Positions 3,729 through 20,955 of a DNA stretch of 21,262 nt are shown piece by piece; positions within the stretch are counted from its first letter, which is position 1, and each line of letters opens with the position of its first letter. A model generated the notes under the pieces. That model saw nothing but the letters and a program-made list of their open reading frames with translations. It did not search any database and was not told the DNA's origin. This DNA comes from a virus. The stretch is taken from IMG/VR virus record IMGVR_UViG_3300031749_000037, positions 1 to 21,262 of that record; one strand, 5' to 3'. The position numbers and the translations under genes were made by a program.

Positions 3729-4181
3729 ATGTGGTGGCGCCGAGCAAAGAAGACGGATCGCCAGTATCTTGTTCCAAATAGGCTTGCTGATGTGCTGGCC
3801 TTGATCCAGGTTCTTGCACTCGACGAACACGCCCACCGAAGCGAAGATGGCCTCAATAGCGAGCTCCAGGGCGGCCCAAAGTCGGGAGGCACATGGACTG
3901 AGGTCGCAAGGATGCACCCGGAGTTCTTTCGTGTGCGCCCCGAAGCGGCTCACGGCGTATCCCTAGTTTCACGCCATGTATTGCCCAAAGACGAACAGGG
4001 AGTCCGCCGCCTGCCGTCAGACCTCGTCGGCCAACTCATAGCTGCTGCGGTTGACCTCTATGACAGACAAGTCAAACGCAGCGAACGTTGGACGTACCTC
4101 GTGCCAATCTGGGTGGCTCTGGTTGTAGGTGTGTTCGGACTACTCGGTGTCGTACTCAAAGCCGTATTCCAGCAGAATTAG
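3729..4181 (+). CDS. Moron: small protein with a single C-terminal membrane segment
   Basis: A 150-residue protein on the strand opposite all surrounding tail genes. Residues 1-115 are a soluble alpha/beta region with LADVLALIQVLALDEHAH, then W-T-E-V-A-x-x-HPEFFRV, then VSLVSRHVLP. A basic stretch (RQVKRSER) leads into one hydrophobic segment at about 122-146, so the protein is probably tail-anchored with its N-terminus in the cytoplasm. I recall similar small hypothetical proteins in many bacterial genomes but no established function. Two 60-base samples gave about 50-53% GC, against about 72% in a sample of the neighbouring tape-measure gene, which suggests separate acquisition. A lysogen-expressed role such as superinfection exclusion is possible but only inferred. 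No terminator separates it from the convergent tape-measure gene. Confidence 0.75.
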   Translation: MWWRRAKKTDRQYLVPNRLADVLALIQVLALDEHAHRSEDGLNSELQGGPKSGGTWTEVARMHPEFFRVRPEAAHGVSLVSRHVLPKDEQGVRRLPSDLVGQLIAAAVDLYDRQVKRSERWTYLVPIWVALVVGVFGLLGVVLKAVFQQN

Positions 4182-4216: not shown

Positions 4217-7200
4217 TCACGCAGTCAATAGCCCAGGACTCAACTGAAGTGCCGTCAGCTCGCGGCGCCCGGCATTGGATCGAGTCGCCATCAAGGTCGC
4301 TCCCTGCACCGCGCGCGGGTTGTCGGCCATTGCCTGTACCGCCTCGCCGCGCAGAAGTGCGGTGGTCGCCGGCCCGTCCAACTGGATGACAACGGCGCCC
4401 GCGCCCGACGCGACTCCACCACCGATCCGGTCGAGTGTCGGCAGACCACCCAGCCCGGGGAGTTCGGTCCCGTTGGCGTAGCCCGACGACTGGAACAGCG
4501 AACCGCCCGACTGGACCAGGTCCACCGGACGGACAGTGCCCGGCAGGCCGGTCGGCTTCTGCCCTGTGCTCATGGCGTACAACTCCACCAAGTCCCGGAT
4601 CTGCTGGCTCCGGATCGCCATGTCGAGGTTGCCGCCAAAGGCCTGCTTCGCGGTATCGACGATCTGCTTCAGGACTCCCTTGTCGGAGATGTCCACACCA
4701 TAGATCGCCTTCACCTTCTCGCGCGCCTTCTCCGTCGCGCCCTTCACAAACAGGCGCACGATTCCGGCCGCGAAACCGATGGCGCCGCCGATCAACGCGC
4801 CGAGAGGGCCGCCGAACTTCGCTCCAATCAGCGCGCCGCCAGCGGTGGTCTCGCCGACGCCCAGCCAGCCGCCGCGTCGCAGACCATCCATCGCGAGGAT
4901 GGAACCGCCGGCCAGCATCGCGCCGCCCTTCCACCCGCCGACGCCGCGCGCATCGGCGATCTTGGTCATGTTGCCCATCTCGTCCACGCGCCAGCGTTCG
5001 GGCCGGAATCCGAGGTTGCCGAGGTTGGTGAGCCATCCTTTGTACCCCGCGGCCATCGACCCCCAACCGCCAATGCCGGCGCCAGCGCCGCCGGAAGCGC
5101 CGCCTTCGGGCGGGACGAATGGGGGCGTGCCCCAACCCCCAGCCGACCCGCCCGGAATCGGCCCACCGCCACCGCCAACGATGCCGCCAAAGCCGCCCAG
5201 GACGGATGCCCAGCCACTGCCTCCGGAAACGCCAGCCTGTGCGTACCCGCCGCGCGCGGCGCCGAACAACTGCATCAGCATGCGGGCGACCTGGGACGTG
5301 ACGACCTCTTTGATCGCAGTCAGCATGGCGGTCTTGAAGGCGTTCCCGATCGCCGACCACACCGACTGAGACTTCGAGACCAGCGCATCGAAGACGCCTT
5401 CCGCCTGCCGCTTGAAGGAGTCGAAGATCTGCCGGTTGTGATCGCGGATGAGCGCGGCCGTCCGGTTCACGGCGTTCTGGCGCGCGGCGTCCACCGCCAC
5501 GTCCGTTGCCTCCTGATTGGCCTGCCGGAGTTGCTCCCGCTGCTGGGTATACTCCGTGATTCGGGCCTTGATCTCCTCGGCCTGGTAGCCGAGCCGCTTC
5601 ATCTCCAGTTCATAGTCGAGGACCCGTTGCGAAGTTTCGAGATCGAACAGGCGCTGCTTGATCTCGTGAACTTGCTCCAAGTAGTCGACTTCGATCTGCG
5701 CCTTCTGCTGCTCGACCCATACCTTCTGCTGGATGGTCTTTGCGTCGTAGGCCTCCAGCGTCCGCAGGCGCGCGTCGCGCTCGTAACCAGCGCGCTGCTC
5801 CTCGATCTGGAGCATGTGCGCGCTGTGCTCCAGGTCCCGGCGCGCCAGTTCCTCGTTGTACGCGAGGCGCGCCTGGTACAGTTCGGCTTCGCGCGCCATC
5901 CGCTGCCGGTTCGCCTCCTCCTCATCCTTCAGGTAGTCGGCGAGATGCCTGCGGTTGTCTTCCAGGAGGCTGCGCTTGAAGGCGCCCCACCGGCGCTCCA
6001 ACTGGTCGATGACGTTGACCCACGCATCGCGGGTGAGCTTGATCCGGTGCTCGACGCCCTTGTCGTCGGTGAACGTGGTCCACTTCCGGACCTGTTCGTT
6101 CACCTCCGCAATGTCCTTCGCAAAGCCGGCCTTTCCCTTGATCCCGGCCTGCTCGGCCGCGCTCAACGACTCTCGCTCCACCTCCTGCTGCCGCTTCCGG
6201 ATCGCCGCCGCCAGCTTCAACTGCTCGATGTCCGGCTCGTTTCCAACCTTCAGCGAGATCTTCGGGAGCCCGCTGAGATCGATATCCTCGCTGCCGGGCA
6301 GCGCCCGCCGCCGCGAAATCAGCTCGCGCAGTTCATCGGTGGTGAAGGTGCGATCGCCGAGGGCCCACGTGCCATCCTTACCTTGCTTCGCCTTGCCGGC
6401 CAGGACCTGTTCGCGAAGGGCGTCGCGCTCCTGCTCTTTGAAGCGTGCCTCCATCTGCTCCTGCGTGTCCTTCCAGTTGGAATACACGATCGCGCCGGCT
6501 GCGAGCACTCCGGCCGCCAGGAGCGCATACGGGTTGATGGCGGCGAGATTGAGCGCGGCAATGGCCTTCGCAAGCGCCATGATCTTGGTCGCGAGGGCAT
6601 ACGTCGCCAACACCCCGGAAACCCACAGCGCGACCTGCCCGAACTTTGCCAGCAGGTCAATGTTCTCTTTGAGCCACTTCGCGACGTCTTTCAGGTGGCC
6701 CACCATTGACTTGTAGTTCTCCTGGAACCGCTGCCCGATGGCCTCGCGGAGTTCCACCATCTCGCGGTGGAACTTCTTTACCTGCGCCTCGGCCTCACCC
6801 GACGCCGCGGCGTGCGCCCCGGAAACCTTGGCGCCCTCGCGCATGACGGCGTTGTACCGCACCTGCTGGATCTCGTTCTCGTTCAGGGTCCGGCCCAACT
6901 TCAGTTCTTCGCGCTGCACCTCCTTCTCGAAATCCAGGAAGATACCCATCGACCGGAGACCCCGCGACACGCCGCCCTCGATCGCCAGCAGAAGCTTCTC
7001 CATCGCCTCGCCGGCGTCGATGTTCTCGATGGCGGCGGCGTCCTTGGCGAGCTTCGCCAGCCCGGTCGCCTTCGAGAGATCCATGTTCGCGATCATGAGG
7101 CGATTGACGGTGTGCGTGGCCTCCTGCGTGTGGTAGCCGATCTGTTTGACCTGCTCCACCCAATGCTGCACCTGCGCCGCCGAGTATCCGTGCGCCTGGC

Positions 7201-7498
7201 CCAGCGCCTTGGCCGAGGCCAGGATCTTGTTGGAGTGCGCGGCGTACTCCACCGCGCCGACCGTCCACGACTTCGCCCACGCGAGCGCGGACTTGATGGC
7301 GTCCGCAAGCAGGTTGCCCGCCGTCGCGCCCTTCACCATGGCGGCGGTCATGCCGTCGATGCCGGTCGCGGCGGTCTTCGCGCTCTTCGTGGCCGTGGCC
7401 TCGATGCTGGACAGGTTCGCGTTGACGCTCTTGATGGACTGGTTGGCCTTGTCCACCTCCACGGTGACGACCAGTTCGATCTGGTTATTGCTGGCCAT
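4217..7498 (-). CDS. Tail tape measure protein
   Basis: A 1093-residue protein that sets tail length and is threaded through the tail tube. The N-terminus (to about 270) is mostly helical, with the TAAMVKGATAGNLLADAIKS motif common near the start of tape measures. Two hydrophobic segments follow at about 286-308 and 321-341, typical of the membrane-insertion region. Residues about 540-700 form long Glu/Arg/Gln-rich coiled coils. Then comes a Gly-rich linker (about 745-820) and a Gly/Ala-rich C-terminus with GGPLGALIGGAIGFAAG. The start overlaps the frameshift extension of the tail chaperone by 14 bases, as in lambda G/T-H. The Shine-Dalgarno site is weak, which fits coupled translation. Length is within the normal tape-measure range. 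Confidence 0.95.
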   Translation of the reverse strand: MASNNQIELVVTVEVDKANQSIKSVNANLSSIEATATKSAKTAATGIDGMTAAMVKGATAGNLLADAIKSALAWAKSWTVGAVEYAAHSNKILASAKALGQAHGYSAAQVQHWVEQVKQIGYHTQEATHTVNRLMIANMDLSKATGLAKLAKDAAAIENIDAGEAMEKLLLAIEGGVSRGLRSMGIFLDFEKEVQREELKLGRTLNENEIQQVRYNAVMREGAKVSGAHAAASGEAEAQVKKFHREMVELREAIGQRFQENYKSMVGHLKDVAKWLKENIDLLAKFGQVALWVSGVLATYALATKIMALAKAIAALNLAAINPYALLAAGVLAAGAIVYSNWKDTQEQMEARFKEQERDALREQVLAGKAKQGKDGTWALGDRTFTTDELRELISRRRALPGSEDIDLSGLPKISLKVGNEPDIEQLKLAAAIRKRQQEVERESLSAAEQAGIKGKAGFAKDIAEVNEQVRKWTTFTDDKGVEHRIKLTRDAWVNVIDQLERRWGAFKRSLLEDNRRHLADYLKDEEEANRQRMAREAELYQARLAYNEELARRDLEHSAHMLQIEEQRAGYERDARLRTLEAYDAKTIQQKVWVEQQKAQIEVDYLEQVHEIKQRLFDLETSQRVLDYELEMKRLGYQAEEIKARITEYTQQREQLRQANQEATDVAVDAARQNAVNRTAALIRDHNRQIFDSFKRQAEGVFDALVSKSQSVWSAIGNAFKTAMLTAIKEVVTSQVARMLMQLFGAARGGYAQAGVSGGSGWASVLGGFGGIVGGGGGPIPGGSAGGWGTPPFVPPEGGASGGAGAGIGGWGSMAAGYKGWLTNLGNLGFRPERWRVDEMGNMTKIADARGVGGWKGGAMLAGGSILAMDGLRRGGWLGVGETTAGGALIGAKFGGPLGALIGGAIGFAAGIVRLFVKGATEKAREKVKAIYGVDISDKGVLKQIVDTAKQAFGGNLDMAIRSQQIRDLVELYAMSTGQKPTGLPGTVRPVDLVQSGGSLFQSSGYANGTELPGLGGLPTLDRIGGGVASGAGAVVIQLDGPATTALLRGEAVQAMADNPRAVQGATLMATRSNAGRRELTALQLSPGLLTA

Positions 7499-7817
7499 GG
7501 TTTCCCGGCAGGCTCTCGCGGTCGTGCCGATCCCGCTCTTCTTCGAGGATCTGCATCGCCATGAACTCGTCGGCCCGAATCTCGTCGAGCGAGATCCGGA
7601 CGCCCAATTTGAGGGCCGTGCGCAGGTCCAGGGCGCGCCGGATCAAGAGTCCGGCCTCGGTGTGCTGCGCGGCGTCCAACTTGTCGAGCGGGCACGCGTC
7701 GCAGCGCCCGCCCTCAGGCGCGTCCGGGCAGAGACGCGGCTCGCAGAGTTGCTCCCGCCGGAGCGCCCAATAGACTAGGTGCCGCAGGGAGGGCCGCTTC
7801 GGCCACTCCCCCGCTAA
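7485..7817 (-). CDS. Tail assembly chaperone frameshift extension (lambda T-like), four-Cys motif
   Basis: An open frame of 110 codons, -1 relative to the chaperone gene, running from the slippage site to TAA at 7487-7485. It has no ATG or GTG near its 5' end; the first usual start is a TTG at 7679, after the most conserved-looking part, so expression by frameshift is the simplest reading. Early residues include FLAGEWPKRPSLRHLVYWAL. A cysteine cluster C-x4-C-x8-C-x2-C at extension residues 25, 30, 39 and 42 could bind zinc. A charged helix, LKLGVRISLDEIRADEF, ends the domain. Fused to the upstream gene it gives a 317-residue product. In lambda the equivalent gpGT binds the tape measure and recruits tube protein. 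The 3' end overlaps the tape-measure start by 14 bases. Confidence 0.8.
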   Translation of the reverse strand, partial: LAGEWPKRPSLRHLVYWALRREQLCEPRLCPDAPEGGRCDACPLDKLDAAQHTEAGLLIRRALDLRTALKLGVRISLDEIRADEFMAMQILEEERDRHDRESLPGNHGQQ

Positions 7818-7820
7818 AAA
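7785..7820 (-). other. Programmed -1 ribosomal frameshift signal (U-run plus hairpin)
   Basis: In mRNA sense the chaperone gene ends AGT TTT TAG. Five consecutive U (7820-7816) let the P-site UUU codon at 7819-7817 re-pair with UUU one base back, giving UUA next, with a stop codon waiting in the A site. A strong stem starts within about four bases: GGGAG (7810-7806) pairs with CTCCC (7791-7787), with one U bulge at 7805, and GGCC (7804-7801) pairs with GGCC (7795-7792) around a GAAGC loop. This is not a standard X-XXY-YYZ heptamer, but run, stop and hairpin together fit a tail-chaperone slippage site. Confidence 0.75.
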
Positions 7821-8437
7821 CTTGAGTCCCGGTCCTCCTGGGCGAGGTTGTCGAGCGCGTCGATGGCCGCCTTGACCGCGACCGCCTGATGGATGATCGG
7901 CACCGCGCCCACGTAACCCTCCGTCGCCTGCACGAGCCTCTTGTAGAGGTCGCCGGCCGCGCGCAGGTTGATGGTCAGTTCCTGCCGGTTGTACGGCAGA
8001 TCGACGACCCGGGCGAAGCCGCGCCGGTACTCGAACACATCCTTCGCGGAGGGCATGCGGAGCAGATGAACCGTCGTGGCGCCCAGCACGTTGGTGACGA
8101 CCCGGATGTTGTCGCCGACAGAGACCGCGTCATCCACCTCCGCATGGCTCAACTGCTCGACGCACCGGGCCGCCTCGAAGGGATCGATCTCGGCAGCCGC
8201 GTCTTCGTCGGTGCGGATCTTGGCGAGCAGGGCGGCGTCCACATCCTCGGCATTGGGGATCAACGTCTCCGACCGCCCGCGCCCGAGTTGCTTGATCACG
8301 ACCTTGCGCCGGCGCTGCCGCTCGGCCCAGTCGTCATCGGAAGGGAAACGGACTCGCACGGTCTTGGTCCCGTCCGGGGTCCGCAGTTGAATGGCGACCG
8401 GCACGGTCCCATCGAACACTGGAGCGTTGCTGTCCAT
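7814..8437 (-). CDS. Tail assembly chaperone (lambda G-like), zero-frame product
   Basis: A 207-residue acidic helical protein between the tail tube and tape-measure genes, the position of lambda gpG. It opens with a strand region containing VPVAIQLRTPDGTKTVRVRF, then DDWAERQRRRKVV, and continues with charged helices that include DPFEAARCVEQLSHAEVDDA. A start 27 bases upstream (8464) is possible, but the ATG at 8437 follows the previous gene's TAG and a strong AGGGAGGA five bases before it, so I chose that. Its last codons, TTT TAG, form part of the frameshift signal producing the longer fusion. In lambda the short and long forms in fixed ratio coat the tape measure during tube assembly; the same is inferred here. 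Confidence 0.85.
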   Translation of the reverse strand: MDSNAPVFDGTVPVAIQLRTPDGTKTVRVRFPSDDDWAERQRRRKVVIKQLGRGRSETLIPNAEDVDAALLAKIRTDEDAAAEIDPFEAARCVEQLSHAEVDDAVSVGDNIRVVTNVLGATTVHLLRMPSAKDVFEYRRGFARVVDLPYNRQELTINLRAAGDLYKRLVQATEGYVGAVPIIHQAVAVKAAIDALDNLAQEDRDSSF

Positions 8438-8447
8438 CGAATCCTCC

Positions 8448-9491
8448 CTACTGGCAGATCCCATCCACGTTGCATTTCGCGACCGCCTGGATAACGCCGT
8501 TGCTGGTGTCGTACATCGGCAGGCAATCGACGGCGACAGTCAGAATCTGATCCGTCTCCGCGATCTCCACGGCAGAGAAGGAGACCTTCTGCCAGGTGAC
8601 CTGGAGCGAGTTGTTGACGTCGAACTGAAGGTTGATCACCGCCGTCCCGGTCGTTTGCGCCTTGAGCTTCGTGTACTCGGTCGAGCCGTTATCGAAGCGG
8701 GCCACGAATCGCAGGTTGCCTTGCCGGTTGCCGAACTCGAGGCGGCCGCGGATCGCGCCCGATGCGCCGTCGCCGGCAGACTGGAACCCGGATCCGGGGA
8801 AGAAGCCGGAGTCCATCCGGATGTTGTTCTTCCAGCCGGTTTCGAGCGAGACGATGTTCTTGCTGGTGACGTAGTCCACGCCGTTGATCGAAAGCGTCAA
8901 CGACGCGGCGGGCAGCAGCTTTTCCGTCTGCGCGGCCGGCATGGTGATGCCCGTCGCGGAGTCGATCACCTTGCCTGAGCCGACGAACTCGACGCTGATC
9001 TTCGAGTTCGCGCGGCCCGGCCCAGATCCGATGGAGATCTGCCACGATTCGACTGCGCAACCGACCGCCTGACGGTCGAGCACGACGCCCGCGCCCGGGC
9101 GGATCTGCTCCACGAAGGAGAAATAGGGTAGTTCCGCGAGATCCCCGTTCGCCGGAAGGAGCGGCGTTACCGTGTAGGTGAAGTTCGGGTTCGATCCCGA
9201 CTTGACCGGCTTGCCCAGCCCAAAACACATGGCCCACGCCGCGATCTCCGCGCCCAGGTGCTTCTCCAGCGTGCCGCCCACGTCCCAGGAGGTCTTGAAC
9301 GTCTGGGTGGGAAACTCGTGCCCCTTGCCGTACTCGTCGGCGTCGTTCTCCGTGGCCAGGCGCGGATTGGCGAGCGCGCCGTTGAGCTTCGAGAAGCGCC
9401 ACAGCGCGGCGGCGCCCTGCGCCGTCGCGATATCGGTCTGCTTGCCTTTGCCGAAGGCAATCAGAACCTCTTGAAGCCTAGTCGTGGACAT
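8448..9491 (-). CDS. Major tail tube protein
   Basis: A 347-residue beta-rich protein. Features are an N-terminal FGKGKQTDIATAQGAAALWR arm, WDVGGTLEKHLGAEIAAWAM (a tube-protein strand-helix-strand core), a central LPYFSFVEQIRPG segment, and a C-terminal part with repeated strands (LEFGNRQGNLRFVARF, AVINLQFDVNNSLQVTW). This fits the phage tail tube family 2 (Phage_tube_2-like) by my recollection. Subunits stack as hexamer rings around the tape measure. It has the strongest Shine-Dalgarno site in the region, GGAGGAGGTGA about seven bases before the ATG at 9491, as expected for a highly expressed structural protein. Position before the chaperone equals lambda V. It is longer than simple tube proteins, so an extra surface domain may be included. 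Confidence 0.88.
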   Translation of the reverse strand: MSTTRLQEVLIAFGKGKQTDIATAQGAAALWRFSKLNGALANPRLATENDADEYGKGHEFPTQTFKTSWDVGGTLEKHLGAEIAAWAMCFGLGKPVKSGSNPNFTYTVTPLLPANGDLAELPYFSFVEQIRPGAGVVLDRQAVGCAVESWQISIGSGPGRANSKISVEFVGSGKVIDSATGITMPAAQTEKLLPAASLTLSINGVDYVTSKNIVSLETGWKNNIRMDSGFFPGSGFQSAGDGASGAIRGRLEFGNRQGNLRFVARFDNGSTEYTKLKAQTTGTAVINLQFDVNNSLQVTWQKVSFSAVEIAETDQILTVAVDCLPMYDTSNGVIQAVAKCNVDGICQ

Positions 9492-18633: not shown

Positions 18634-18709
18634 CGATCTATTTCCCGAAGATTCCGCTTGCTATTCCGTTTGACCGAAGGGATGAATGGACCTGCAAGGA
18701 GATAAGCAG
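18634..18709 (+). promoter_or_regulatory. Leader copy 1 (promoter/5'UTR of the DUF3489 cassette)
   Basis: Bases 18675-18709 match 19290-19324 at 31 of 35 positions, with 17 identical bases at the 3' end, TGCAAGGAGATAAGCAG. Weaker similarity extends about 30 bases further upstream. In both copies a TTGC-starting hexamer lies 17 bases before GATGAA, a possible but weak -35/-10 pair. Copy 1 carries an ATG at 18686, but the better start for the gene is 18731, behind its own AAAGGA. Confidence 0.55.
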
Positions 18710-18730
18710 CAGCGGAAAGGAACCACGAAC

Positions 18731-19204
18731 ATGAAAAACGCCAGCAAAGCCAAAACCAGCAAGACGCCGAAGGCCAGCAACCCGGCCTCCAAAGCCGCCA
18801 CCAAGAAGGGCGCGAACGCGCCCACCAGACACGCCACCGCGAAGCCGGCCGGCGGGAAGCAGACCGGCGCGCTCAGCCCGGAGAAGCTCGATCAGGTCCA
18901 GGCCGTGGCCAACTCCGGTGTGACCAACCCTGAGATCCTCGAAGCCGCGGTCGATGCGATCATCAAGGCCCCGGCGCCCGCCAAGCAGGAGAAGCCCGAA
19001 GCCCGCGACGGCAGCAAGAAGGCGGTGGTCCTCGCCATGCTGCGCCGCGAGGGCGGCGCCACCCTGGGCGAGATCGCGAAGGAGACCGACTGGCAGCTCC
19101 ACAGCATCCGGGGCTTCCTGAGCGGCCAGATCGCCAAGAAGATGGGCATCAAGATCGAGTCCACCAAAGCCGACGGCGGGAAGCGGCGCTACCACATCGC
19201 GTAG
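18731..19204 (+). CDS. DUF3489 protein with basic histone-like N-terminal tail
   Basis: A 157-residue protein from the ATG at 18731 (AAAGGA about nine bases before); a longer frame from 18686 includes the leader. Residues 1-50 are Lys/Ala/Thr/Pro-rich and probably disordered, like linker histone tails. Residues 93-157 form the DUF3489 core: SKKAVVLAMLRREGGATLGE, IAKETDWQLHSIRGFLSGQI and KKMGIKIESTKADGGKRRYHI, which looks like a winged helix-turn-helix. The function of the family is not established; DNA binding is inferred. It is monocistronic, with a dedicated leader and terminator, oriented away from the late operon. The family is common in proteobacterial and other soil-bacterial genomes and prophages. 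Confidence 0.85.
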   Translation: MKNASKAKTSKTPKASNPASKAATKKGANAPTRHATAKPAGGKQTGALSPEKLDQVQAVANSGVTNPEILEAAVDAIIKAPAPAKQEKPEARDGSKKAVVLAMLRREGGATLGEIAKETDWQLHSIRGFLSGQIAKKMGIKIESTKADGGKRRYHIA

Positions 19205-19261: not shown

Positions 19262-19324
19262 CGATTATTCCCTTGCCTTCTTCGCGCACCGAAGTGATGA
19301 ATCGTCATGCAAGGAGATAAGCAG
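19262..19324 (+). promoter_or_regulatory. Leader copy 2 (promoter/5'UTR of the 109-residue cassette)
   Basis: Second copy of the leader. The conserved block at 19290-19324 ends in AAGGAGATAAGCAG directly before the ATG at 19325, placing AAGGAG eight bases from it, an ideal ribosome-binding site. The TTGC-17-GATGAA spacing seen in copy 1 is kept. An ATG at 19307 inside the leader is probably not the start. Confidence 0.6.
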
Positions 19325-19654
19325 ATGGCCAAAGCCAGAACCAAGCAGACGAAAGAGGCGCCCACGCCGGGATTCGCGATCCGGATCACTCCTCAAACGG
19401 AACTGGGCCTCGCGATGTTGATCGCAGAGACCGAGGATGGCCGCTACGAACCGGTCGCGGTGGTGGCCTCGGTTGCGGAGGCGCAGGAGATCGCGAAAAG
19501 CGACTTCGCCCGCCGCGTCAAAGAGATCTCGATGGGTTGCGAGGACGTGGCCTGCCCGGCGCGCTACGCTATCTGGGCGCAGGGCCTGGGCGGCGACTAC
19601 AAGCCGCTCCGCGACTACACCATCGAGGGCGCCGAACCCCACATCGAGTGGTAG
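19325..19654 (+). CDS. Conserved hypothetical protein, 109 residues
   Basis: The ATG at 19325 is chosen because it follows the shared leader's AAGGAG at eight bases. After a basic start (AKARTKQTKEAPTPG) the protein has FAIRITPQTELGLAMLIAET, then YEPVAVVASVAEAQEIAKSD and RYAIWAQGLGGDYKPLRDYT, a compact alpha/beta domain with two cysteines (C-x4-C around residues 72-77). I do not recognise an established family, though I recall similar small ORFs near DUF3489 genes. It is single, with its own leader and terminator, and ends opposite the methyltransferase gene. Sharing a leader with the DUF3489 gene suggests common control. Confidence 0.75.
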   Translation: MAKARTKQTKEAPTPGFAIRITPQTELGLAMLIAETEDGRYEPVAVVASVAEAQEIAKSDFARRVKEISMGCEDVACPARYAIWAQGLGGDYKPLRDYTIEGAEPHIEW

Positions 19655-19673: not shown

Positions 19674-19697
19674 CCGCCCGGCGACGGGCGGTTTTTC
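19674..19697 (+). terminator. Rho-independent terminator after the 109-residue gene
   Basis: CCGCCCG (19674-19680), GCGA loop, CGGGCGG (19685-19691), then TTTTT (19692-19696). It lies between the convergent ends of this gene and the methyltransferase gene and overlaps the latter's stop codon. Confidence 0.88.
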
Positions 19698-20955
19698 AGT
19701 TCACGGCCACTGCATTCTCCTTCGCCACATCGTCGAACGCCCGCCCGGTAGCTTCCTGCATGGCGTGACCGCCCGTGAATTCCTGCCAGCGGCGAACGAT
19801 CACGTCGCAGTACCTGGGCTCGAGTTCGACGATCCGCGCCTGCCGCCCGGTCTTCTCGCACGCGATCAGCGTCGAGCCCGAGCCGCCGAACGGATCAAGC
19901 ACGGTGTCGCGGCTCTTGCTGCTGTTCCGGATCGCCCGGTCGACGAGTTCGACGGGCTTCATCGTCGGGTGCAGGTCGTTCACCACCGGCTTCTTCACGA
20001 ACCACACGTCGCCCTGATCGCGGGCCCCGCACCAGTAGTGCTCGGCGCCTTCCTTCCAGCCGTAGAGCATCGGCTCGTACTGCCGCTGGTAATCCGACCG
20101 GCCCATCGTGAACGTGTTCTTCGCCCAGATGACGAACGTGGACCAGTGGCCGCCGGCCTCGCGGAAGACCCTCTGCAGCGTGTGCAATTCCGAAGACGAC
20201 ATGCAAATGTACACCGCACCCTTCGTGACTGCCAGGATGTTGGCGCAGGCCTGCTGAAGGAACCGCTCGAAATCCGCTCCCAGGTTGTCGTTGGCGATCT
20301 TCCGGTTCTTCTTTCGGAGCTTGTCCTTCATCGTCGCGCCGTAGTTCACGTTGTACGGCGGGTCGGTGAAGACCATATCGGCGAGGCCTCCGGCGAGGAC
20401 CTTTTCGACGGACTCGATCTGCGTGGCGTCGCCGCACAGCAGGCGGTGATTGCCCAGCACCCAGATGTCGCCGGGAGCGGTTACCGGACGCTCAGGCGCC
20501 TCCGGAACGGCGTCGTCGTCCGTGAGGCCCGCGCCCGGCTCCGCTTCGGGATCGGCGAGCAGGGTTTCCAACTCATCGTCGGTGAAGCCGACCAGGTCGA
20601 GGTTGAAGCCGTCCTCCTCGAGCGTGGCCAACTCCACACGCAGCATCTCTTCGTCCCAACCGGCGTTGAGCGCCAGCCGGTTGTCGGCCAGCACCAGCGC
20701 GCGGCGCTGGGTTTCGGTCAGGTGGTCGAGGACGATGACCGGAACTTCGGTCATGCCCAGTTTGCGGGCGGCGAGCAGGCGGGCGTGGCCGGCGATGACG
20801 ATGCTGTCGGCGCCGGCAAGAATCGGATTGGTCCACCCGAACTCGGCGATTGACGCCGCGATCTGGGCGACCTGTTCGTCACTGTGCGTGCGCGCATTCC
20901 GGGCGAACGGAATCAGCTTCTCGACCGGCCACGCCGCGACCTGCAAGCTCGTCAT
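19696..20955 (-). CDS. ParB-like / beta-class DNA (N6-adenine or N4-cytosine) methyltransferase fusion
   Basis: A 419-residue protein. N-terminal residues about 8-90 are a ParB/Srx-type domain: LIPFARNARTHSDEQVAQIA, then EFGWTNPILAG, and GHARLLAARKLGMTEVPVIV with GHAR (56-59) in place of the GHRR motif. An acidic linker (about 125-160) follows. The C-terminal half is a methyltransferase: DPPY at 198-201 (motif IV) comes before the SAM-binding FGGSGST at 356-362 (motif I), the order of the beta class. HPTMKPVELVDRAI precedes motif I as usual. Such fusions are common in phages and plasmids; they methylate DNA and may protect it from host restriction. No restriction nuclease is seen nearby, so it appears solitary. 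The start overlaps the preceding stop (ATGA). Confidence 0.93.
   Translation of the reverse strand: MTSLQVAAWPVEKLIPFARNARTHSDEQVAQIAASIAEFGWTNPILAGADSIVIAGHARLLAARKLGMTEVPVIVLDHLTETQRRALVLADNRLALNAGWDEEMLRVELATLEEDGFNLDLVGFTDDELETLLADPEAEPGAGLTDDDAVPEAPERPVTAPGDIWVLGNHRLLCGDATQIESVEKVLAGGLADMVFTDPPYNVNYGATMKDKLRKKNRKIANDNLGADFERFLQQACANILAVTKGAVYICMSSSELHTLQRVFREAGGHWSTFVIWAKNTFTMGRSDYQRQYEPMLYGWKEGAEHYWCGARDQGDVWFVKKPVVNDLHPTMKPVELVDRAIRNSSKSRDTVLDPFGGSGSTLIACEKTGRQARIVELEPRYCDVIVRRWQEFTGGHAMQEATGRAFDDVAKENAVAVN

What the first reader, a model, noticed from the sequence alone, without database searches (positions are those of the whole stretch)
7485..8437. Programmed -1 frameshift joins the tail chaperone to a four-cysteine extension
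The chaperone stop codon sits in a run of five U, and the -1 frame is open for 110 codons with no ATG or GTG near its 5' end. A hairpin (GGGAG/CTCCC plus GGCC/GGCC, one bulged U) begins about four bases downstream. This resembles lambda G-GT, but the slippery site is P-site UUU with UAG in the A site, not a standard X-XXY-YYZ heptamer. A simple gene caller would miss the extension's start and break it at a TTG.
Basis: partly seen in the sequence, partly recalled or inferred. Interest (0 to 1): 0.72.

Follow-up and report, generated by a model that had tools for sequence, protein, structure and literature searches.

The report
Conserved frameshift in phage tail gene
This soil-bacterium phage, like phage lambda, appears to make a second, longer form of a tail-assembly helper protein by letting ribosomes slip back one base; about 140 related viruses keep the same slip, so it is real but of a well-known kind.

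Summary
A 207-codon tail chaperone lies between the major tail and tape-measure genes and ends TCA AGT TTT TAG. The -1 frame runs on for 110 codons with no start codon, overlapping the tape-measure start by 14 nt. I compared 142 distinct sequences (window plus relatives from IMG/VR and Acidobacteriota genomes). In every one the extension leaves the slippery site in the -1 frame; L138 alone departs further downstream, through an extra C inside the extension. Most relatives have a standard heptamer (C CCA AAC, A AAU UUU/C or G GGA AAC). The window belongs to a minority (19 of 141) with A AGU UUU-like sites, where only tRNA-Phe can re-pair (U_UUY); these arose at least three times. The downstream hairpin has moderate support. 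Four cysteines are invariant in every complete extension and absent from lambda T. More distant relatives also shift -1. Verdict: a lambda G/GT-type -1 frameshift with dnaX-like stimulators, a new member of a known kind. The repeated swaps of slippery site and the Cys4 extension are the interesting parts. No protein-level test was possible.

The parts
7814..8437 (-). G-like tail assembly chaperone, 0-frame product, 207 aa
   Evidence: 56-75% identical relatives; lies between the major tail gene and the tape-measure-sized gene
7834..7839 (-). internal Shine-Dalgarno-like AGGAGG, 10 nt 5' of the slippery site
   Evidence: anti-SD pairing -7.98 against -5.73 +/- 0.20 kcal/mol after synonymous randomisation; Glu at codons -5/-4 is GAG 126 to GAA 11 against 1196 to 742 in the rest of the gene
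7817..7823 (-). slippery site A AGU UUU (core U_UUU)
   Evidence: the same place holds C CCA AAC (86), A AAU UUU/C (31), G GGA AAC (5) or degenerate forms (19) in 141 sequences
7814..7816 (-). 0-frame stop UAG, directly 3' of the slippery site
   Evidence: adjacency not conserved in all relatives
7787..7810 (-). predicted stimulatory hairpin GGGAG-(U)-GGCC / GGCC-CUCCC
   Evidence: sequence; region more stable than synonymous shuffles across 138 sequences; pairing and double changes above all 300 synonymous shuffles
7485..7817 (-). T-like extension read in the -1 frame, 110 codons plus stop
   Evidence: 60-75% identical in relatives; 68% of pairwise differences at third codon positions of this frame
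7692..7745 (-). four-cysteine stretch C-x4-C-x8-C-x2-C in the extension
   Evidence: 84 of 84; present in every complete extension, 138 sequences
4217..7498 (-). tape-measure-sized gene (1093 aa); its start overlaps the end of the extension by 14 nt
   Evidence: identity inferred from length and position (no profile match)
8448..9491 (-). major tail protein candidate, immediately upstream
   Evidence: PHROG 290 (tail), E 8e-12

Best explanation
A programmed -1 ribosomal frameshift of the lambda G/GT type in a siphovirus-like phage or prophage of Acidobacteriota (Bryobacterales and kin). Most ribosomes stop at UAG and make the 207-aa chaperone. A minority, paused by AGGAGG pairing with 16S rRNA behind the slippery site and by a hairpin ahead of it, slip back one base on U_UUU through re-pairing of tRNA-Phe. 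They continue ...DSSF|LAGEWPK... into a 110-aa extension, giving a fused ~317-aa protein. By analogy with lambda, both forms would coat the tape-measure protein and the extension would recruit the major tail protein. Shown: frame relation, conservation, slippery sites, synonymous constraint, absence of start codons. Inferred: slippage itself, its efficiency, the stimulatory role of SD and hairpin, zinc binding, role in assembly.
For: 142 distinct sequences have the extension in the -1 frame at the junction (L138 then has an extra C inside the extension). Among 141 classed, the junction carries C CCA AAC (86), A AAU UUU/C (31), G GGA AAC (5) or degenerate U_UUY sites (19). The tree needs 14 swaps between site types, so slipperiness rather than sequence is kept. 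125 of 139 have no ATG/GTG/TTG in the extension frame before its conserved Trp, and some have a -1-frame stop only 10-13 nt before the chaperone stop. The extension is protein-coding: differences 22/11/68% by codon position. SD-like element. Synonymous constraint peaks at the SD codons (z 2.95) and the first ~12 extension codons (z 2-3). Distant subfamilies also shift -1. Gene order matches lambda V-G-T-H. A host genome has a canonical anti-SD, GGCTGGATCACCTCCTTT.
Against: No protein or reporter data. The window's own site breaks the heptamer rule: P-site tRNA-Ser would have to mis-pair on AAG. The hairpin is not significant in the single sequence, differs in the PSF/PSY subgroup, and tree-controlled covariation is inconclusive. 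Neither protein matches a named chaperone family at a meaningful level, so 'chaperone' rests on gene order and frameshift architecture.
Confidence: 0.94

Rival explanations
1. The extension is a separate gene with its own start (TTG 7679 or re-initiation at the chaperone stop).
For: A mechanical ORF of 64 aa starts at TTG 7679; an SD-like AGGAGG lies upstream of the junction.
Against: The segment 5' of that TTG (EWPxxPSLRxLxxWxLRR...C...C...CxxC) is among the most conserved parts. 125 of 139 relatives have no ATG/GTG/TTG before the conserved Trp, and no start codon lies at SD distance in the window.
Confidence: 0.03
2. Transcriptional slippage on the T run makes mRNAs with an altered number of U, producing the fusion without ribosomal slippage.
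For: The window has a run of five T at the junction.
Against: Most relatives shift -1 at CCCAAAC or GGGAAAC with no long homopolymer; five bases is short for polymerase slippage (general knowledge).
Confidence: 0.01
3. A frame error or decayed gene: the chaperone and extension were once one ORF.
For: Two open frames meet end to end.
Against: The same -1 offset at the same place in 142 sequences from independent contigs and genomes, with kept slippery sites. No in-frame fusion was found. One relative (L138) does show what a frame error looks like: an extra C in a C run within the extension.
Confidence: 0.01
4. The shift is real, but in the window it is a stop-codon-driven single-tRNA slip (UUU in the P site, UAG in the A site) rather than a tandem slip on a degenerate heptamer.
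For: P-site AGU, ACU or GAU cannot re-pair in the -1 frame; only U_UUY is kept in the 19 degenerate sites and in L252 (AGATTTT TAA); 18 of 19 have the stop adjacent. The minimal -1 site is described as a tetranucleotide Z_ZZN with one tRNA re-pairing (PMC5009743).
Against: L217 keeps A AGU UUU with CCU next and the stop 12 nt on, so the stop is not strictly needed; standard A AAU UUU/C sites have the stop adjacent just as often (28 of 31). Both routes give the same peptide.
Confidence: 0.4

Closest known systems
Phage lambda G/GT -1 frameshift (tail assembly chaperones)
   Same: Gene order major tail - G - T - tape measure; extension in the -1 frame; extension overlaps the tape-measure start
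   Different: Lambda uses G GGA AAG (sequence); proteins are not recognisably homologous; lambda T has no cysteine, here four are invariant; an SD-like element is conserved here
E. coli dnaX -1 frameshift
   Same: Three-part layout: internal SD, slippery site, downstream hairpin (described in PMC5600365)
   Different: Different gene; here no A AAA AAG site; slippery site varies within the family
PRFect 'twoonefour' and 'threetwotwo' motifs in phage tail chaperones (PMC10885494)
   Same: By the motif names, the window's AAGTTTT fits twoonefour; distant relatives use CCCGGAA, the commonest threetwotwo site there
   Different: Those motifs were inferred from annotated phages; here they are seen replacing standard heptamers within one family
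Single-tRNA tetranucleotide sites Z_ZZN (for example A_AAG of IS1222; PMC5009743)
   Same: Only one tRNA can re-pair in the new frame
   Different: Here U_UUU/U_UUC with tRNA-Phe, mostly followed by UAG

Membership tests
lambda-type G/GT programmed -1 frameshift | Two overlapping ORFs between the major tail and tape-measure genes, second in the -1 frame | tested here: met
   -1 at the junction in 142 of 142 sequences
lambda-type G/GT programmed -1 frameshift | Slippery sequence at the junction | tested here: met
   Standard heptamer in 122 of 141; degenerate U_UUY in 19 including the window
lambda-type G/GT programmed -1 frameshift | Extension lacks its own start | tested here: met
   window; 125 of 139 relatives
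lambda-type G/GT programmed -1 frameshift | Fused product made at a low fixed ratio and needed for tail assembly | not testable with these tools
   needs a bench test
named tail chaperone protein families (Pfam, PHROGs, NCBIfam) | Profile match of G or T | tested here: inconclusive
   No match at E 0.001; stray hits at E 0.069 and 0.15 to PHROG 344 and 15493 'tail assembly chaperone' in one member each; fold search weak (Mu FS-gp41 at E 0.13, prob 0.38)
standard X XXY YYZ heptamer | Both tRNAs re-pair in the -1 frame | tested here: not met
   Window A AGU UUU: only UUU re-pairs
dnaX-like stimulated frameshift | Internal SD about 10 nt upstream | tested here: met
   AGGAGG 10 nt upstream, selected at synonymous sites
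dnaX-like stimulated frameshift | Downstream hairpin supported by covariation | tested here: inconclusive
   Stability and pair counts above synonymous shuffles; tree-controlled pairs too few
zinc-binding domain | Bound metal | not testable with these tools
   Cys4 invariant; distant relatives carry further CxxC pairs; predicted model locally unsure there

The most novel reading that the evidence does not exclude
A family of phages in which two-tRNA heptamers have been replaced several times by a single-tRNA U_UUY site backed by a strong internal SD, so that slippage no longer depends on the P-site codon, and in which the frameshift-made extension is a zinc-binding Cys4 domain, a type of T extension I did not find described.
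Probability: 0.4. Interest if true: 0.5.

Novelty: new member of a known kind. Interest (0 to 1): 0.33.

Why it matters
It extends the G/GT tail frameshift to a large, previously unmatched phage group of Acidobacteriota (no hit to P0001 or P0002 in 50,697 named phage records) and corrects gene models that lose the extension. The family is a natural experiment: the same junction with four classes of slippery site swapped many times, which makes the contribution of the P-site codon, the stop codon and the internal SD directly comparable. The invariant Cys4 suggests that the tail-recruiting part is a metal-binding domain here.

Tried and rejected
Rfam: no match. Named phages: no match to G, T or the distant T versions. 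Pfam/PHROGs/NCBIfam: nothing meaningful for G or T. Fold search of the T model (viral) and of G (PDB and viral): no convincing match. Second look for T in PDB: best Z 3.0, uninformative. PDB by sequence for T: only E about 0.2 to ribosomal S3, judged chance. A consensus RNA fold over all relatives failed because the PSF/PSY subgroup folds differently. Transcriptional slippage and independent start were considered and rejected (see rivals). The list of 'starts' printed was read in the wrong frame when the upstream stop was far; supersede it. The first tree mislabelled L172 and held a partial row, L149; one search replaces it.

Full report
What is there. The relevant genes are on the minus strand. 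The chaperone ORF runs 8437-7814 (207 aa) and ends GAC TCA AGT TTT TAG. Read one base back, the sequence continues AAG TTT TTA GCG GGG GAG TGG (K F L A G E W) and stays open to 7485, 14 nt past the start of a 1093-codon tape-measure-sized gene at 7498. Upstream is a tail protein gene (8448-9491, PHROG 290, E 8e-12); further upstream come head closure, major head, scaffold, head protease, portal and terminase genes. This is the lambda order V-G-T-H. The record is a 21-kb virus contig.

Relatives. Searching IMG/VR with G and T and GTDB genomes with a G alignment gave relatives; all 40 genome loci are in Acidobacteriota, mostly Bryobacterales by their record titles. A T profile found matches in 29 of 101 genomes of one host family. 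After removing copies, 142 sequences (window included) cover the junction. In all of them the extension begins in the -1 frame right after the slippery site. The one row flagged as frame 0 (L138) starts in the -1 frame and is then displaced by an extra C in a C run inside the extension.

Slippery sites. Of 141 sequences (a partial row, L149, left out): C CCA AAC 86, A AAU UUU 26, A AAU UUC 5, G GGA AAC 5, and 19 degenerate (A AGU UUU 15 including the window; one each of G AGU UUU, C AGU UUU, A AGU UUC, A ACU UUU). On a tree of the chaperone the four classes need 14 changes; the degenerate class alone needs 8, of which at least 3 are forced by well-supported branches. The window's nearest relatives (L111-L115) use C CCA AAC. 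The degenerate sites keep U_UUY and lose only the P-site match. The 0-frame stop is adjacent in 18 of 19 of them and in 28 of 31 A AAU UUY sites, but is absent next to the site in L172, L207, L217 and L223, and is one codon downstream in 33 of 86 C CCA AAC sites. So an A-site stop may help but is not required. Distant subfamilies (G profile E about 1e-34 to 1e-40 for most) also place T in the -1 frame, at C CCA AAC (L241-L243, L245, L248), C CCG GAA (L244, L246, L249, L250) or C UCG GAA (L247); L252, less distant, uses A GAU UUU UAA. From the motif names, AAGTTTT fits PRFect's 'twoonefour' class; CCCGGAA is given there as the commonest 'threetwotwo' site (PMC10885494). A review describes the minimal -1 site as Z_ZZN with one tRNA re-pairing (PMC5009743), which fits U_UUU.

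Is the extension translated, and how? Differences between relatives fall 22, 11 and 68% at codon positions 1, 2 and 3 of the extension frame. In 125 of 139 sequences no ATG, GTG or TTG lies in that frame between its upstream stop and the conserved Trp; in the window none lies from -316 to +60. Five relatives have a -1-frame stop 10-13 nt before the chaperone stop. Independent initiation of the conserved N-terminal part is therefore practically excluded. The order of slip cannot be told from peptides: tandem and single-tRNA slips both give DSSFLAGEWPK.

Stimulators. An AGGAGG lies 10 nt upstream of the window's site (7839-7834). SD-like sequence ends 10 nt upstream in most A-type and degenerate sites and 7-9 nt upstream in most C-type sites. 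Pairing with the anti-SD is -7.98 kcal/mol on average against -5.73 +/- 0.20 when codons are swapped synonymously, and Glu codons at that place are GAG 126 to GAA 11 against 1196 to 742 elsewhere in the gene. A host genome has the canonical 16S 3' end. Synonymous conservation peaks over these codons (z 2.95) and over the first dozen extension codons (z 2-3), then returns to background. The hairpin region is more stable than synonymous column shuffles (-18.0 against -16.4 +/- 0.17), while a region further downstream is nearly neutral. The bulged hairpin is paired in 83.2% of cells and has 20 double changes, above all 300 synonymous shuffles (maximum 82.3% and 16), including G-C to C-G swaps at paired wobble positions. 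These shuffles ignore relatedness; a tree-controlled test had too few informative pairs, and the PSF/PSY subgroup prefers another stem. Verdict on the hairpin: likely, not proven.

The extension. W5, C25, C30, C39, C42 and several other residues are invariant in 84 of 84 sequences; every complete extension in the larger set (138) has the four cysteines. The three exceptions are two truncated contigs and L138. More distant relatives have additional CxxC pairs, as in zinc ribbons. Lambda T has no cysteine. The predicted T model is confident for its helices but not for the cysteine stretch. Zinc binding is an inference.

Conclusion. It is a lambda G/GT-type frameshift with a dnaX-like layout. The slippery site in this genome is a degenerate member of an otherwise standard set rather than a new principle.

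Noticed in passing
window 19696-20955, minus strand: ParB-like nuclease fused to a DNA methyltransferase (PHROG 498, E 5e-162) upstream of the terminase genes.
   Followed up: no
window 3729-4181, plus strand: A 150-codon ORF on the opposite strand within the tail region, with a hydrophobic C-terminal segment; may be a moron gene or a spurious ORF.
   Followed up: no
window 18686-19204 and 19307-19654, plus strand: Two opposite-strand ORFs upstream of the terminase genes; the first (172 aa) has an alanine/lysine-rich start and resembles small DNA-binding proteins by eye only.
   Followed up: no
L241-L250: Distant tail-chaperone subfamilies in the same host family whose -1 extensions carry two or more CxxC pairs and use C CCA AAC, C CCG GAA or C UCG GAA slippery sites.
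   Followed up: partly
L138, about 5600-5660: An extra C in a C run inside the extension shifts the frame; probably an assembly error or a decayed copy.
   Followed up: partly
L207, L217, L223, L172 junctions: Relatives in which the 0-frame stop has moved downstream of the slippery site, giving a longer unshifted chaperone.
   Followed up: partly
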